Positions 2,061 through 9,291 of a DNA stretch of 64,000 nucleotides are shown here, one piece after another (within the stretch, counting starts at the first letter, position 1; every line of letters starts with the position of its first letter). The stretch lies in IMG/VR virus record IMGVR_UViG_3300022851_000011, positions 1 through 64,000 of that record; one strand, 5' to 3'. Source of the DNA: a virus. The translations under genes and the position numbers were made by a program. The notes beneath the pieces are model-generated. The model saw only the letters and a program-made list of their open reading frames with translations. It did not search any database and had not been told where the DNA came from.

Positions 2061-3050
2061 CTATACATCAAATAGTGTATTAAAAGTCGAAGTAACGTCT
2101 GTTTTAGTATCCAAATCCCACTTCATAACACCAAGCAAGTTTTTAATTTTTTGATCCACAATAGTTGCAAGCATTAACTCGTTATCAAACGGCAAATCCT
2201 TAAACCAGTCTGGAATATGTGGTTCATCAATCGGATACCCGATGCTCGTATATCCAAGCGGATTATTCTTTAACTTACACACAATAGTCTTTTGACCGTC
2301 TTGAATATCCATTGAATAGTTATCAGAATAGAACTTTTTTAACTTATTCCAATGAATAGCTGCCGATACGTGACCGGGAATCATTACGCCTTTCATGCCC
2401 TTATTTTCATACATCTTGGTGTACTTGGTAAGGTTGTTCACACGTTTTGGCGTACCTTTTTCCCAAGGCGGACGTTCTACAAACTCTTTTTTGAAGTCAA
2501 AAATCTTACCAATGATTTCATCTTCTTCTTTGTCTGTTAACACATCGATAAGGATTTCCATAAGAAATTCTTGCATATACCCCGGCGTATCCGAACGCTT
2601 CAAGTCCAAGCCCATAGCTTTGACTTTGCCCTCTTTGCCATCAACATCACGGCGTGTTCCTTCGTCGTCATAAATCATAAGACCATACCGCTTCTTCTTT
2701 ATGAACAATCCTTTTGTTGCGATAAGTTCTCGGCCACCTTCAATGATTTCGCCCATATGTTGCGGACAGTTAAATGCTTTCTTCATAAACGGAGGAAACG
2801 ATTCATTTACGGCTTCCGACACCTGATCGTATACTTCGGTGCAGATTTTTTTCGACCATTCCATTTCACCATTATTAACCGCATCTTCGATAACTGGCCA
2901 CATTGAAAAATACACGCTGTTATGAACGAGAATGTTGTTGCCGAAGAACCATGGATGCTCTTCATTCTTCATGCCTATGTCATAGACATATTCATCATCA
3001 AAGTTGTCTAACTGTTTGACAGATTTTACTTTAGCTTTTTTAACTTCCAT
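2061..3050 (-). CDS. gp43: DNA polymerase C-terminal fragment with C-terminal half of a split intein
   Basis: Residues 1-44 form a C-intein: block F is EYVYDIGM...HPWFFGNN and block G is ILVHN, with Ser45 as the +1 extein nucleophile. Residues 45-329 continue the polymerase right after motif C (SVYFSMWPVIED) and include KKKRYGLMIYD, the equivalent of the T4 gp43 KKRYALNVWD strand, followed by the thumb domain and a C-terminal TSTFNTLFDV that resembles the clamp-binding tail of T4 gp43. The start is the ATG at 3050 with an AAAGGA ribosome site. Trans-splicing with the N-intein on the piece at 3159-4112 would rebuild YGDTD-SVYFS. Confidence 0.88.
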   Translation of the reverse strand: MEVKKAKVKSVKQLDNFDDEYVYDIGMKNEEHPWFFGNNILVHNSVYFSMWPVIEDAVNNGEMEWSKKICTEVYDQVSEAVNESFPPFMKKAFNCPQHMGEIIEGGRELIATKGLFIKKKRYGLMIYDDEGTRRDVDGKEGKVKAMGLDLKRSDTPGYMQEFLMEILIDVLTDKEEDEIIGKIFDFKKEFVERPPWEKGTPKRVNNLTKYTKMYENKGMKGVMIPGHVSAAIHWNKLKKFYSDNYSMDIQDGQKTIVCKLKNNPLGYTSIGYPIDEPHIPDWFKDLPFDNELMLATIVDQKIKNLLGVMKWDLDTKTDVTSTFNTLFDV

Positions 3051-3162
3051 TCCGCCATTCCTTTACTCGTTGTATAATAGTATATTGGTCGTGATACCAA
3101 TCATTTTCCCAGATAACAAATACCTCGTATCCATTATTGGTAGCATATGATGAAGACCTTAT
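3040..3162 (-). pseudogene. Remnant of a Vsr-like homing endonuclease between intein halves
   Basis: Between the two intein genes there is an open frame of 40 codons without a start codon. It contains GYEVFVIWENDWYHDQ and ends in a conserved-looking basic helix, matching the C-terminal strand (GYxVxxIWExDW) of Vsr-like endonucleases, the family known from fractured genes with split inteins in environmental phage DNA. The N-terminal catalytic part is missing. The frame begins inside the stop codon of the N-intein gene and ends 11 nt inside the C-intein gene, in other frames. I read it as the decayed tail of the nuclease that once mobilised the intein. Confidence 0.6.
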
Positions 3163-4112
3163 TCAGTAGTAGTAATAAGTAAATCATCCTTCAATATATC
3201 TCGTGGTTTTATTTCCATCAATACGCCATCTCTCTCAACCATAACTGAGTGATCGCCAGTTACACGAATGGTATTACCATATTGATCCTCAATTTCCCAT
3301 TGTTCTTTAGATACCTTATGCCTGTAGATATAATTGATGTGCCCGTAATACGCTTTGCCTTCTTCCGGGTTATACGAAAGAACCTTCAAATCATCGTTAG
3401 CACTATATTCCTTTGTATCATCCTTGGCATCATTCCAATAACGCTGCCCTCGGTTGAACAATTCTTCTACGGTAAGCTCACCCCAATTGGTCTTGTGTAT
3501 GGTTTCGGCAAATTCTGAGTCTGTGTCGCCATACACAATACTTTTTCCAGTATGATCGTATTCACCCGCCAGTGATTGATTCACGTATGCTGACATATGC
3601 TTTGCAATACACCGACCAGTTAGTGTGGTTGACTGTCCGATATCAAAGACGTAGAAACGACAATGCTTATTCAATACAGCACCATACACATTTATATTCC
3701 ACATAAGTCGTTAGTTTATGTGCGTTCTCTCATGAACTGCTGTATGTCGCCATACAGATTAGACTATATCACCAACCTTGAAGGTTGCTCCCCGTTTCGT
3801 ATCACTTGATACTACTGCTTTCGCATAGTCGTTGAACCTTCCCTTACGGGCTTGGCTGCGGATTGTCTCGGTGAGAGTTCCCCGCAGTTAGAGGAGTTTT
3901 TCATTATATATTACTATATAAAGTCGCAATATTTACGAATTCAAGTTGATCTTTTTGACCAACTGCCGCTTATCCCGGAATGCTACTGCACCCCTATCTT
4001 TGTTTTCAATCTTGCCGTTTCTTACAACCAAATCGTTTTCTCTCATCACTTGTTCTAACTTTTCAGTTTCGTTATTGCTGATGAGGTCTTGGATTGTAGA
4101 GACTAAATCCAT
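3159..4112 (-). CDS. gp43: DNA polymerase middle fragment, two exons around a group I intron, with N-terminal half of a split intein
   Basis: Exon 1 (4112-3935, 59 codons plus 1 nt) begins MDLVSTIQDL with an AGGAG ribosome site and ends FRDKRQLVKKINLNS. Exon 2 (3688-3159) continues LYGAVLNKHCRFYVFDIGQ, so removing 3689-3934 restores motif B of family B polymerases (KINLNSLYGA). The polymerase part ends at motif C, IVYGDTD, whose two aspartates bind the catalytic metals. From there a 119-residue N-intein starts with Ser1 (SEFAETIHKTNWGELTVEELF, block A) and includes block B, VTGDHSVMV. The spliced product is 235 aa. Unspliced, translation of exon 1 would stop at once at TAA after ...NS. Start, exon joints and intein ends are read directly from sequence; splicing itself is inferred. 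Confidence 0.82.
3689..3934 (-). ncRNA. Compact ORF-less group I intron in DNA polymerase motif B
   Basis: The intron interrupts codon Leu of NSLYGA. The 5' exon ends UCGU and the intron begins AAAUAUUGCGA, so UCGU pairs with GCGA as a P1 helix with the usual U.G wobble at the splice site. The last intron base is G. The core contains GAGACAAUCCGCAGCC, CCCGUAAGGGAAGGUUC, AACGACUAUGC and later GAUAUAGUC, the typical P4-P6 and P7 strands of T4-phage-like group IA introns. It is only 246 nt and encodes no endonuclease. Insertion at this motif is also the known pol-a intein site of archaeal polymerases, showing convergence on conserved codons. Confidence 0.85.
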
Positions 4113-4302
4113 TCAATTCTCCTATCTCTGTGAGTTTATATTTGGCAACACCTAAATCTTTTAGGCATTTCCCGTGATATTCACCGAAAAAGTTTTTCCT
4201 ATCTTCACGCATATTGTGATGAGGTTTAGGAAAAGACATTTCTATATCATCCACGTATTTTCTTGGAATATCTATTTGATTCTCTTGTAATAATGATATC
4301 AT
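4072..4302 (-). CDS. Unknown ORF inside the insert that splits the DNA polymerase gene
   Basis: This ORF lies in the insert between the N-terminal and middle polymerase pieces. The first ATG is at 4302 (76 aa), but the same frame is open without any usual start codon to 4428 (KQYEFLKENEVES...), so the 5' end may be lost. Its last 14 codons overlap the start of the middle polymerase gene in another frame. In related T4-like phages with split gp43 the insert carries a homing endonuclease; I see several His residues (NHxMREDR, EYHGK) but no definite nuclease motif. It may be a decayed endonuclease. Confidence 0.45.
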   Translation of the reverse strand: MISLLQENQIDIPRKYVDDIEMSFPKPHHNMREDRKNFFGEYHGKCLKDLGVAKYKLTEIGELNGFSLYNPRPHQQ

Positions 4303-4450
4303 ATTTTTGCCGCCAATAGCAATATAATCTTTATACTTATAGCACTTTATATTTTTAACAGAATGCCCGTCATAACGGTAATGGTGACTTTCAACTTCAT
4401 TCTCTTTTAGAAACTCATATTGTTTGGTTTATTTAGGACAAAAGACGAGA

Positions 4451-6094
4451 TTAGTCGTCTATCAAATCCTTTCCAAGTTTAGACATAATATCATTAGGTA
4501 CTTCTATGGTAGAATCATCAATAACCGCCGCTGCCTTCTTCTTGGCTTGTAGTTCTTGGCGTTCTGCGTACCATTTTTCAAGTATGCCGGGAATGATGCC
4601 TTGCTTATTATACTCAAATACTGTGCCGTTACCGCTTACTACCCATTTTTCACCACCATGGAAAATAATATCGTTAATTTCCTTGCCAGTATGTGTGGTT
4701 TGCTTGCCATCTGCCCATTGTACTTTGAGTGGTGTGGTATCATCTTTATCATCCATAAAGGAATATTCAAGTGTACCAAATAACCCTTCCCATGCTCCTG
4801 CAAACGACTTGCCTTCAGCCATTCGTTTTTCAATAAGCGGACGTGTATGTGTAGGCAATAACTGTGCTACAAATGTCTCGGGACTCATATTCAATGCACG
4901 AATAGCCGATGGATATAGTGAGTTAATATCGATAGCACCTACCCATTTATGTGTGCCTTTCTTCGGATGCGCCACATAAGCACCAGCCGCACGGTGATCT
5001 TCGTCGTCGCCATAATGAACCTTATTAGGCACAACCATATCAAGTGAATGCGCATAGTTGATAAGGGCTTGGTCAGTAACACCAACGGCACCCATAGCTG
5101 CCGCAATAAGCACTGTATTATCGTGTGCGATTTCATTGCATAGATCAATAAACTGTAGCTTATCATCAAGTTGCTTTAATAGCAAAGTATCCTGACGGTT
5201 GTATTCAATGAACTTATAAAAGTCGTCATTGTATAACTTATCTAGCGATCCTGCGTATTGGATTTTACGGGCACCTAGTTCATATTCAGAAATGGTATCC
5301 AACGAATACGAATGCATTTCGTGATAGGTATATTGCTGATACAATGATAGGCTATCCAAGTGAATACGTCCACGTAAATCATACGTCTTTTGCATCTTGC
5401 CATATTTTTCGTATTCACGTTCTTTTGGGAGTTGGTCAAGTAAACAGAAACGGCGTGTGTCATTCTTACTAAGAACCCGTGCCGTTCGGTTAACCATATA
5501 CGGAATATCGTAGCCTTCACTGTTCCAACCCGTAAGCACATCGGCTTCTTGGATTAAGTCAAGGAACGTTTCAATCATATCCCCTTCGTTACTGAATAGG
5601 TATGTGTTGGGGAAATCCATCATTGCCTCGGCTTCTTCAAGCGTCAGTGTATTTGGTGGAATAGCTAACGTAACCATTTCATCCATCCACGAACAATATA
5701 ATGAGATAGCCGTTACTTTATTGAACGGGTCATCGGGTGGCGCAAAACCAAGCGTAGGCGAAAAGTCAACCTCAATATCGAAGAAGCACACGTTTAGCTT
5801 GGGCGACATCTGCCCAATATAGTGACGTTCAAGTGTCTTATTAACAATATTTATATCACTTTCCCATACACGTGTCTGACTACGACTTTTCAACTCACGA
5901 TGAAATTCCTTTTTACTATCAGATTCGAATTTGGAAACAGGATTACGAAAAATAGTATTATACTTTCCAGCTGGATCGTCATAATAAAACGTCCATTTAC
6001 ACGGATGTTCGGTTACTATTCGTTTACCATTCAGTCTTTCAACTACCTTAACAACGTTATTTCGTTTATCGTAGATTGCGTCAACGTAACTCAA
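4451..6094 (-). CDS. gp43: DNA polymerase N-terminal fragment: 3'-5' exonuclease and palm up to motif A
   Basis: The 547-aa product holds all exonuclease motifs of family B polymerases: Exo I FFDIEVDF, Exo II LTGWNSEGYDIPY and Exo III YNRQDTLLL. It then has motif A as AIDINSLYPSAIRALNMSPET and the WYAERQELQAKKK finger helix, and stops at ...GKDLIDD before motif B. Together with 116 residues from the middle piece and 285 from the C-terminal piece the polymerase would be about 948 aa, close to T4 gp43 (898 aa). The stop is followed by a 338-nt insert and then a separately translated piece, so this is a split gene rather than an intron at this joint. Conserved motifs look intact, so the enzyme is probably functional after assembly. 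Confidence 0.9.
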   Translation of the reverse strand: MSYVDAIYDKRNNVVKVVERLNGKRIVTEHPCKWTFYYDDPAGKYNTIFRNPVSKFESDSKKEFHRELKSRSQTRVWESDINIVNKTLERHYIGQMSPKLNVCFFDIEVDFSPTLGFAPPDDPFNKVTAISLYCSWMDEMVTLAIPPNTLTLEEAEAMMDFPNTYLFSNEGDMIETFLDLIQEADVLTGWNSEGYDIPYMVNRTARVLSKNDTRRFCLLDQLPKEREYEKYGKMQKTYDLRGRIHLDSLSLYQQYTYHEMHSYSLDTISEYELGARKIQYAGSLDKLYNDDFYKFIEYNRQDTLLLKQLDDKLQFIDLCNEIAHDNTVLIAAAMGAVGVTDQALINYAHSLDMVVPNKVHYGDDEDHRAAGAYVAHPKKGTHKWVGAIDINSLYPSAIRALNMSPETFVAQLLPTHTRPLIEKRMAEGKSFAGAWEGLFGTLEYSFMDDKDDTTPLKVQWADGKQTTHTGKEINDIIFHGGEKWVVSGNGTVFEYNKQGIIPGILEKWYAERQELQAKKKAAAVIDDSTIEVPNDIMSKLGKDLIDD

Positions 6095-6838: not shown

Positions 6839-7671
6839 ATGTCAAACGAAGTAACTCTATCTGCGAGTATTCGCAGTAACCTAAACTCACTACAAAATAC
6901 AACTAACCTCTTAGAAATGACACAAGGACGCCTTTCGTCAGGAAAGAAAGTCAACAATGTTATTGATAATCCATCATCATTCTTTATTGCACGTGGTTTA
7001 AGCAGTCGGCATCCGATCTATTGACGGTAAAAGAAAACCTAGCAAACAACATCGTTACTGTACAAACAGCTACTGATGCTCTAGAGTCCATTGAAGGTCT
7101 GCTAAAGCAAGCAAAAGCTGTTGCTGAATCTGCTAAAGCATCTTCAAGCGTGGCAGAACGTACTACATTCTCAGCACAATATGATGGTATTCTTGACCAG
7201 ATCAACAACACCAGTGCAGACGCTACATTCAATGGTGTTGGACTACTGAAAGCTACGCCAGATAGCTTGACCGTGAAGCTAAACGAAACCACAACAACAT
7301 TGACGGTTGCGGGTATTGCTTCTGATCAAGTTGGTCTTGCAGTAACCGACGCTGGTGATTGGGAAAACGCCACCATAGCAACTGGTACGACCGCCATTGA
7401 TGTTGATATCGCAAAGATTGATGCAGCATTGTCAACTGTTCGTACATCAGCTAAGACGCTTGGTACAAATGCAGCGTTGATTCAGTCACGTGAAGAGTTC
7501 ACAGCTAATATGATTAACAGCCTCAAAGAAGGCGCTGGTAACTTGGTCAACGCAGACCTAAACGAAGAATCAGCTAACTTGCTAGCTCTTCAGACACGCC
7601 AAGCACTAGCTAACAACTCGTTGAGTCTTGCTGTTCAATCTGAACAAGCAATCCTTAGTCTTTTTAGATAA
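6839..7671 (+). CDS. Phage-borne flagellin with an internal frameshift
   Basis: The two frames together encode a flagellin of about 277 aa. Frame one (6839-7024) has the N-terminal D0/D1 signature (SASIRSNLNSLQNTT, RLSSGKKVNNVIDNP, SFFIARGLSSR). Frame two (from about 7014 to 7671) continues SDLLTVKENLANNIVTVQTATDALESIEGLL, a short variable centre, and the C-terminal helices ending LALQTRQALANNSLSLAVQSEQAILSLFR, like alphaproteobacterial flagellins. One missing G near 7010 (SSR then ASDLL) causes a stop at 7022-7024. Otherwise the gene is undamaged, so this may be a recent mutation, a sequencing error or, less likely, programmed frameshifting. No other flagellar gene is present. Flagellin in a T4-like phage is unusual; an adhesive or decoy role is speculation. 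Confidence 0.85.
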
Positions 7672-8036: not shown

Positions 8037-8239
8037 ACTAAGATATTAATTTTTAAACCACGAGTCACATTGATGGAACTTACGTCTGTTGGACCGTAGG
8101 TTTCATCATATGATTGGCGTTTTTCTATGCTTGCCAATTCATATTCACGTGCCATTGCACTACGACTACGATTTTCATAAGCCATCGCCGCACCACGGCT
8201 GTCAAGGTTAATGTTAACACTTGATGGTAATATTTTCAT
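8033..8239 (-). CDS. Small hypothetical protein (68 aa)
   Basis: The start ATG overlaps the stop of the upstream gene (ATGA) and an AAGG site precedes it, so it is translationally coupled to 8236-9291. The sequence is Ser/Arg/Tyr rich (YENRSRSAMAREYELASIEKR) without known domain. Confidence 0.6.
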   Translation of the reverse strand: MKILPSSVNINLDSRGAAMAYENRSRSAMAREYELASIEKRQSYDETYGPTDVSSINVTRGLKINILV

Positions 8240-9291
8240 TTTACACCTTTTGCTGCTGCAATGTTGGAAATCCAGTTCTTACGTGGTTCCCTTGTGCTTT
8301 CAAAATGGAATTCCCGCCCACGGATACGTGAATATCCTTCTTCGGCAGTACCCATCGTGAACTTTCCAAGGTTGATGTTCTCGCCGCTATTCAATAACAA
8401 ATGAACTTCATTGCCACCAGCGGGTTTGAATAGAACACCATCTTGATCATACTGTACCATAAGTTTCTTAACAAGACCTTTAAGATTACCACTATCATTC
8501 TCGTTTCCGACGATGAATACGGTATCTTCTTCAACTTTTTGTTCTTCGGGTGTGCCTTGATTTTCAATCCAGCCGCCGTCGATAAACGTATATCCATACC
8601 CGGCTTTCTTTACTTGTCCAGCAAGTTGGCGGTTACGGCGTAGATTTTCGTGACGATTTTCCTGTCCGCCACGGAACGCAGTAATAAACGCTACGGGACG
8701 ATTTGGGTTATCAAGATGCTGGAAAATACGACCAAGTGACGATTCGCCAATCATGTCATGAACTGATTCAACCACACTTAACGTAATAAGTTCACCGCCA
8801 TCGTCTTCAATGATAAATGCTTCTTTTAGCTGACCATCTGCAATCTTGATAAGTTGACCGATATCTTTTGTTTCTGCTTCATCGCCCTTAGAAAGTTTAA
8901 CATCAGCGAAGTTACCAGCCTGTTTGCCGATATCGGTACGTTCGGTATGATACTTTGCCCATTTAATTATATTATCATACGTAACGTTAGTCATACGATT
9001 GATATTCATTGCCCAGAAATACTGTTTGCGATATAATCGAGTTCTAATCCACCCCCTTTTGACAAGTGCCAAAATGATTTGTTCACGTGCTTTGCCCTCA
9101 GTGCCCATAGGCTCATCAAAGTCGGCGTAAAGTTTATCAATATATTCCTTGGTTAGCCCGAACTTCTCAGGACGTTCAATAACTGTCTGAATATGCATTT
9201 GACCAGCAATATCCAATATCTCACCACGTGGTGAAATCCAGTATGCCATTCCCGGCGCTAAGTTTGGGTTTGCTATTTCATTTAATCTCAT
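8236..9291 (-). CDS. Putative virion or ejected protein with a YWISPxG module
   Basis: The 351-aa protein begins MRLNEIANP, one of a set of similar leaders in this window. Residues about 17-125 (AYWISPRGEILDIAGQMHI...RPEKFGL...ALVKRGWIRTRL) match a segment of the giant neighbour at 11871-15266 (KYWIHPASKKIIELASEGEHH...KPQKYGV...YANGWVRF), so they share a module. The middle has YDQDGVLFKPAGGNEVHLL near the end and a FITAFRGGQENRHENLRRNR segment seen in related phage proteins of unknown function. Expression with late structural genes suggests a virion-linked role. Confidence 0.6.
   Translation of the reverse strand: MRLNEIANPNLAPGMAYWISPRGEILDIAGQMHIQTVIERPEKFGLTKEYIDKLYADFDEPMGTEGKAREQIILALVKRGWIRTRLYRKQYFWAMNINRMTNVTYDNIIKWAKYHTERTDIGKQAGNFADVKLSKGDEAETKDIGQLIKIADGQLKEAFIIEDDGGELITLSVVESVHDMIGESSLGRIFQHLDNPNRPVAFITAFRGGQENRHENLRRNRQLAGQVKKAGYGYTFIDGGWIENQGTPEEQKVEEDTVFIVGNENDSGNLKGLVKKLMVQYDQDGVLFKPAGGNEVHLLLNSGENINLGKFTMGTAEEGYSRIRGREFHFESTREPRKNWISNIAAAKGVK

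What the first reader, a model, noticed from the sequence alone, without database searches (positions are those of the whole stretch)
2061..6094. One DNA polymerase gene interrupted by three different element types
The gp43-type polymerase is encoded as three polypeptides. Joint 1: an intercistronic insert (4113-4450) splits the palm before motif B. Joint 2: a group I intron interrupts motif B. Joint 3: a split intein interrupts motif C. To make one enzyme the cell must splice an RNA, trans-splice two proteins, and assemble a two-chain complex. All catalytic motifs (Exo I-III, A, B, C) are still intact, so the locus seems functional. Split gp43, polymerase inteins and phage introns are each known; I do not know of this combination in a single gene.
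Basis: partly seen in the sequence, partly recalled or inferred. Interest (0 to 1): 0.95.

Follow-up and report, generated by a model that had tools for sequence, protein, structure and literature searches.

The report
Triply interrupted phage DNA polymerase gene
In this virus of bacteria the gene for the main DNA-copying enzyme is cut by three parasitic elements, so the enzyme must be pieced together by RNA splicing, protein splicing and pairing of two chains; the same combination already sits in deposited Aeromonas phages, and relatives found here show how it is put together repeatedly by moving blocks of DNA.

Summary
Confirmed. The minus-strand gp43-type polymerase (2061-6094) is broken at three places: a 338-nt insert, a 246-nt group I intron and a split intein at DTD|S. 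Corrections: joint 1 lies in the fingers, not the palm; its insert is the C-terminal fossil of an HNH-like homing endonuclease (HEG) that is full-length at the same joint in relative L122; the gap between the intein halves holds the end of a Vsr-like HEG. The combination is not unprecedented: Aeromonas phages Aes508 and Aes516 are annotated with all three elements; Aes512 and AS-gz show them by Rfam plus annotation. IMG/VR adds L121, L122 and L154. In a polymerase tree the triple state lies on four separate, supported branches; the window's sister L004 has none of the elements. L121 and L122, about 70% identical in flanking polymerase, share the joint-1/intron block at 89-98% and, separately, the intein at about 90%: two moving blocks. 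The HEG-less intron probably travels with the HEG of the split joint (collaborative homing, a known idea). Motifs are intact and evolution is not clearly faster than in L004, so the enzyme is probably functional. Splicing and assembly are inferred, not shown. Side finding: two inteins separated by only Thr-Asp in three relatives.

The parts
4451..6094 (-). Chain 1: exonuclease domain, palm motif A and first part of the fingers (547 aa; TTG start with AGGAG upstream)
   Evidence: PHROG 262 E 2.5e-114, Pfam DNA_pol_B_exo1 E 1.1e-21; start region
4113..4450 (-). Joint 1 insert
   Evidence: Absent from uninterrupted L004/L010
4102..4422 (-). C-terminal fossil of an HNH-like homing endonuclease; its end overlaps the ATG of chain 2 and holds its AGGAG site
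   Evidence: Matches residues 287-383 of the 397-aa ORF at the same joint in L122, 26% over 99 aa, E 1e-8, 0 of 2000 shuffles as high
3935..4112 (-). Chain 2, 5' exon: 'head' of about 40 residues plus motif B up to LNS
   Evidence: Head matches a model of other split heads (23.7 bits; best of 1000 shuffles 9.3)
3689..3934 (-). Group I intron, 246 nt, no ORF of its own; in-frame stop TAA at its start
   Evidence: RF00028 105.8 bits; junction enumeration; covariation over 5 introns at the same site
3519..3688 (-). Chain 2, 3' exon: rest of motif B to YGDTD of motif C
   Evidence: Alignment with L004, T4 and RB69
3159..3518 (-). N-intein (119 aa, Ser1, TGDH block B) and stop
   Evidence: Pfam and NCBIfam; alignment with PA5oct, Aes508 and others
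3043..3156 (-). C-terminal fossil of a Vsr-like homing endonuclease (38 codons); overlaps the start of chain 3 and holds its AAAGGA site
   Evidence: Matches the C-terminal end of the ORF between the intein halves in L014, L016, L017, L018, L021 and lies between the halves in 17 of 17 further IMG/VR loci with a match
2919..3050 (-). C-intein (44 aa, ends HN)
   Evidence: Alignment; Pfam Intein_splicing E 0.0077
2061..2918 (-). C-extein: Ser+1, rest of palm, thumb and C-terminal end
   Evidence: PHROG 1918 E 4.4e-50

Best explanation
A probably working T4-type (gp43) replicative polymerase in which three elements have settled. Three separately started chains are made (547 aa; 235 aa after RNA splicing; 329 aa). 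A group I intron is removed from the second coding segment, a split intein joins chains 2 and 3 at DTD|S, and the resulting chain of about 401 aa pairs with chain 1 through the fingers, perhaps with help of the extra N-terminal head of chain 2. The elements came as two mobile units: (a) a homing endonuclease that split the fingers, travelling with the head and a downstream endonuclease-less intron; (b) a split intein with a Vsr-like endonuclease between its halves. [quoted passage not shown] Shown: anatomy, homology of the fossils, RNA covariation, recurrence on the tree, block-wise identity between two relatives. Inferred: splicing, trans-splicing, two-chain assembly, the role of the head, and that the joint-1 endonuclease mobilises the intron.
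For: Anatomy and motifs. Intron: (31 of 75 predicted pairs with changes on both sides; the exon-intron P1 pair is U-A in four and G-C in L127). Intein residues Ser1, TGDH, penultimate His, Asn, Ser+1. Fossils. Function: no overall rate increase against uninterrupted L004 with 9 of 11 outgroups; no other PolB and no PolA found in 3 of 3 records. Mobility: the triple state on 4 separate branches, all 4 forced by starred branches; L121/L122 identity 69.6% in chain 1, 88.6% tail to stop, 91.2% head, 98.0% intron, 78.2% 3' exon, 89.5% and 90.2% intein halves, 71.4% C-extein; L122 and L125 share 91% of chain 1 but L125 has joint 1 and the intron site empty.
Against: No RNA or protein data. With outgroups L033 (chi2 7.42) and L060 (4.00) the window changed faster than L004, and with L033 markedly so in chain 1 (11.13). 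Intron and split are not strictly tied: L127 has the intron without the split, and L113, L140 and L148 the split without the intron; the tree-aware test gives p 0.125 and cannot reach 0.05 with so few pairs. The chain-1 tail of the window does not match other tails. The L122 endonuclease has only a sub-threshold NUMOD3 hit; HNH is read by eye. Higher identity of introns than exons can also come from RNA constraint.
Confidence: 0.8

Rival explanations
1. The interruptions arrived independently, one by one; split and intron occur together only because the fingers and motif B are separate hot spots.
For: L127 has intron without split; L113, L140 and L148 split without intron; tree-aware pairs p 0.125. 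Endonucleases of several kinds use the joint: HNH-like in L122 and L148, Vsr-like on the other strand in L154, GIY-YIG in Aes508.
Against: L121 and L122 share joint-1 tail, head and intron at 89-98% on a background of about 70%, as one peak; 4 of 5 intron bearers are split against 3 of 57 others (Fisher 3e-4, not corrected for kinship).
Confidence: 0.3
2. The gene is a decaying pseudogene or an assembly artefact.
For: Three breaks in one essential gene; both endonuclease remnants are decayed.
Against: Three contigs agree; motifs intact; no overall excess of change with 9 of 11 outgroups; each chain has an upstream purine-rich site; the same arrangement recurs in other viruses.
Confidence: 0.05
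3. Ribosomes bypass or shift across joint 1 so that chains 1 and 2 are one polypeptide.
For: Bypassing is known from T4 gene 60 (recalled).
Against: 338-nt gap, change of frame, own ATG and AGGAG for chain 2; split relatives show very different gaps, from overlapping or nearly so in L113 to about 1.3 kb in L122.
Confidence: 0.03
4. The elements are kept as regulators: intron or intein splicing responds to conditions and gates replication.
For: Two splicing steps at the active site of one enzyme; the idea of inteins and introns as sensors is in print (title in the reference list shown).
Against: Nothing in the sequence tests it; close relatives replicate without the elements (L004, L125 at two of three sites).
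Confidence: 0.07

Closest known systems
gp43A / gp43B-1 / gp43B-2 of Aeromonas phages Aes508 (JN377894) and Aes516 (JN377905); also Aes512 (JN377903) and AS-gz (MF479730)
   Same: Polymerase split in the fingers, group I intron in motif B region, split intein at DTD|S; Aes508 has a GIY-YIG and a Vsr-like endonuclease in the two gaps, Aes516 has none annotated
   Different: Only about 25-32% identical in the polymerase; intron 12 nt further downstream (YGA-L|GN instead of NS-L|YGA, read by eye); the window has fossils of an HNH-like and a Vsr-like endonuclease
Split gene 43 plus intron of Aeromonas phage 25 (NC_008208) and coliphage G2285 (MK327933)
   Same: Split with an endonuclease ORF in the joint and an intron downstream; for phage 25 a free-standing endonuclease is predicted to move the intron (PMC2993671, passages)
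   Different: No intein; intron at YGA-L|GN
Split PolB inteins of Pseudomonas phages MIJ3 and PA5oct
   Same: Homologous split intein at DTD|S (PMC6892783, passages)
   Different: No intron found, chain 1 and 2 continuous, endonuclease ORF full-length
IMG/VR relatives L121, L122, L154
   Same: Split joint 1, intron at the same site, split intein
   Different: L122 keeps the joint-1 endonuclease ORF, L154 one on the other strand and an ORF between the intein halves; L121 has the joint-1 ORF internally deleted
nrdA of phage Aeh1 split by mobE
   Same: Endonuclease insertion splits an essential enzyme that stays functional as separate chains (PMC2988022, passages)
   Different: Other enzyme, no intron or intein; assembly through element-derived tails is recalled only (paper not held)

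Membership tests
Family B polymerase, T4 gp43 type | Exo I-III and motifs A, B, C | tested here: met
   Aligned context with T4 and RB69; PHROG 262 and 1918
Split gp43 (43A/43B type) | Two chains divided in the fingers before motif B | tested here: met
   Frames, stop and start; RB69 residue 515
Split gp43 (43A/43B type) | The chains assemble into an active enzyme | not testable with these tools
   Bench test needed
Group I intron (RF00028) | Conserved core and structure over the gathering score | tested here: met
   105.8 bits, gathering 50; covariation
Group I intron (RF00028) | U at the 5' splice site paired to G, terminal G, reading frame restored | tested here: met
Group I intron (RF00028) | Self-splicing | not testable with these tools
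   No RNA data
Split intein / fractured gene | Both halves with splicing residues, on separate ORFs | tested here: met
Split intein / fractured gene | Vsr-like endonuclease gene between the halves | tested here: met
   As a 38-codon fossil only; the fossil itself hits MTES_1575 at E 0.016, below cut-off
Split intein / fractured gene | Trans-splicing activity | not testable with these tools
   Bench test needed
Collaborative homing cassette | HEG-less intron close to a free-standing endonuclease gene | tested here: met
   Fossil in the window; ORF present in L122 and L154
Collaborative homing cassette | Endonuclease gene and intron move together | tested here: inconclusive
   Block identity L121/L122 and co-occurrence 4 of 5; exceptions L127, L113, L140, L148
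Collaborative homing cassette | Endonuclease cuts the intron's empty site | not testable with these tools
   Bench test needed

The most novel reading that the evidence does not exclude
The fingers-splitting endonuclease, the head peptide at the start of the downstream chain and the endonuclease-less intron in motif B form one mobile, polymerase-splitting cassette that brings its own re-assembly module; a second cassette (split intein plus Vsr-like endonuclease) has moved into the same active site. The triple arose on at least four branches of this clade and separately in Aeromonas phages, where the intron sits 12 nt away.
Probability: 0.4. Interest if true: 0.7.

Novelty: new variant of a known kind. 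Interest (0 to 1): 0.55.

Why it matters
Reviews leave open whether split gene 43 came from endonuclease insertion (PMC2988022, passages) and how collaborative-homing arrangements arise (PMC10448857, passages). Here one joint is seen in several states: empty (L125), with an endonuclease ORF (L122), internally deleted yet still split (L121), and as a fossil (window). That supports insertion followed by loss as a source of lasting splits, and gives natural material to test whether endonuclease, head and intron home as one block. The set also offers related split inteins and split polymerases for protein engineering.

Tried and rejected
Without use: structure prediction of the joint-1 open frame (mean pLDDT 45.6), so no fold search was run; phage-collection search with that frame (34 records, best E 0.1, all Arthrobacter phages) and a weak PHROG 4210 hit (E 0.0028), set aside after L122 gave a match at the same joint; IMG/VR scan with that frame found only the two contigs of the window's own virus; genome-contig scan with the N-intein gave 5 loci, not examined further. 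Rejected: homology of the chain-1 tail with the tails of other split polymerases. In one search the T4 residue numbers from motif B on came from memory and were off; motifs were judged from the aligned context. Ten loci were not placed in the tree (listed), among them L128, which by eye has a split joint 1; L015 was dropped from the second tree for its long branch. Both trees are the quick kind and warn of long branches. The Rfam call on relatives covered 13 chosen loci of the 54; for the others the absence of an intron at motif B rests on unbroken matches, not on Rfam.
Full report
What is there. The window is part of a virus record of 121,548 bases. On its minus strand lies a gp43-type family B polymerase in separate coding stretches. 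Chain 1 runs from TTG 6094 to a stop at 4451. After 338 nt chain 2 starts at ATG 4112 in another frame, is interrupted by a group I intron at 3934-3689, and ends with an N-intein at a stop at 3159. Chain 3 starts at ATG 3050 with the C-intein. Each start has a purine-rich site upstream: AGGAG, AGGAG and AAAGGA. The conceptual mature enzyme has 948 residues, 547 + 116 + 285. Its exonuclease and polymerase motifs align with T4 and RB69.

Splice sites. Rfam RF00028 gives 105.8 bits over the whole model. Of 51 x 120 junctions tried, the best restores LNS-L-YGA as in uninterrupted L004 and has the canonical U and terminal G. Five introns at this site (window, L121, L122, L127, L154) show 31 of 75 predicted pairs with changes on both sides; the P1 pair between exon and intron is U-A in four and G-C in L127, where the Ser codon is Ala. 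Rfam found the intron in 7 of the 13 relatives given: L121, L122, L123, L124, L126, L127, L154, at 92.9-96.8 bits.

The two gaps are endonuclease fossils. The open frame in joint 1 matches residues 287-383 of the 397-aa ORF at the same joint in L122 (26% over 99 aa, E 1e-8 in a one-to-one comparison, 0 of 2000 shuffles as high). That ORF has a sub-threshold NUMOD3 hit; its HNH-like motif is read by eye. In L121 the same ORF has lost its middle, but the split and the ribosome-binding site remain. Between the intein halves, 38 codons match the C-terminal end of the ORF found at that place in L014, L016, L017, L018 and L021, 5 of the 7 records of this set with an ORF there (L012 and L015 gave none). 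In the IMG/VR set 17 of 52 other loci match, all 17 between the halves. In the phage collection the only two hits, at a weak E of 0.07, are in that ORF of two Klebsiella phages.

Not unique. Aes508 and Aes516 are annotated with split polymerase, intron and split intein, and Rfam finds the intron; Aes512 and AS-gz show the same by Rfam plus annotation. Aes509 has split and intein without a detected intron. Their intron sits at YGA-L|GN, 12 nt downstream of the window's site, as read by eye. Phage 25 and coliphage G2285 have split plus intron there; JSE has its intron in motif A. I found no paper that describes the triple (searches; two Aeromonas phage papers, PMC5539321 and PMC6043867, do not contain the words intein, intron or split), but most subscription papers are not held.

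Relatives. An IMG/VR scan with the N-intein gave 54 loci, classified. Triple: the window's virus (L110 and L111 are the contigs of L002 and L003), L121, L122 and L154. L123, L124 and L126 have split, intron and N-intein, but their contigs end there; L124 is 99.97% identical to L122. In a tree of 63 polymerase rows the triple rows are window (sister L004, none of the elements), L121 (sister L084, none), L122 (sister L125, intein only) and L154 (sister L156, intein only, contig ending in it): 4 rows, 4 changes, 4 forced by starred branches; shuffled labels need 3.9 on average, so the state is scattered. Of 62 rows, 4 have intron and split, 1 intron only, 3 split only, 54 neither (Fisher 3e-4, not corrected for kinship; tree-aware pairs p 0.125, which cannot reach 0.05).

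Moving blocks. L121 and L122 are 69.6% identical in chain 1 and 71.4% in the C-extein, but 88.6% from tail to stop, 91.2% in the head, 98.0% in the intron, 78.2% in the 3' exon and 89.5% and 90.2% in the intein halves (sliding view; the last 75 nt of the 5' exon 98.7%). So there are two peaks with a trough between them: a joint-1-plus-intron block and an intein block. In 9 of 9 pairs of intron bearers compared the intron is more alike than chain 1, for example window/L127 77.6% against 52.6%; RNA constraint may add to this.

The head. The 37 distinct loops of unsplit polymerases that my pattern caught are short (17-31 aa, 32 sequences) or long (95-98 aa, 5 sequences). The window's head matches a model of the other split heads (23.7 bits, best of 1000 shuffles 9.3) and the five long loops match too (18.0-33.8 bits); 12 short-loop polymerases and T4 do not (best 1.5 bits). 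The window's chain-1 tail does not match the other tails. Whether the head comes with the element or merely tolerates it is open; L122/L125 and L140/L143, about 91% identical in DNA over chain 1, differ in head and split together.

Function. Against L004 the window shows no significant overall excess of change with 9 of 11 outgroups; with L033 (7.42) and L060 (4.00) it does. PolB matches in the three records are the pieces of this gene, and PolA was found in none of the three, which may be incomplete. I therefore hold the enzyme to be functional, which implies RNA splicing, protein trans-splicing and two-chain assembly; none of these was observed.

Verdict. It is a fossilised, endonuclease-less instance of a recurrent arrangement with deposited precedents, hence a new variant of a known kind. 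The added value is the series of states and the evidence for moving blocks.

Noticed in passing
L112 5533-6619, L113 5524-6501, L127 6004-7890 (IMGVR_UViG_3300020198_000887, 3300043449_000599, 3300009194_000009): Two related inteins sit at YGD|TD and TD|S of motif C, so that the extein between them is only Thr-Asp and holds a catalytic Asp; in L113 both lie in one open frame. Joining only the outermost ends would lose the dipeptide. My two looks at papers showed no such case, which is far from exhaustive.
   Followed up: partly
L013 and L017, compared with window 3518: The related inteins of Salicola phage SCTP-2 and Klebsiella phage KP13-7 sit two codons upstream, at YGD|TDS, while window, PA5oct and Aes508 have DTD|S.
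   Followed up: partly
6839-7668: Phage-borne flagellin in two reading frames: Flagellin_N E 4.9e-5 (below cut-off) and Flagellin_C E 1.7e-7; the region is identical in L002 and L003.
   Followed up: partly
8239-9291: Minus-strand ORF with an S-adenosylmethionine lyase match, E 1.1e-9.
   Followed up: no
6687: The window has one extra base here relative to both L002 and L003, outside the polymerase.
   Followed up: no
L114 and L115, about 3629-4518: The exonuclease part of the polymerase is interrupted by about 890 nt with a 247-aa open frame that looks HNH-like by eye; Rfam saw no intron in L114.
   Followed up: no
L154 4350-5348: At the same fingers joint a Vsr-like ORF lies on the opposite strand (Vsr E 6e-4, below cut-off), so endonucleases of different families use this joint.
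   Followed up: partly
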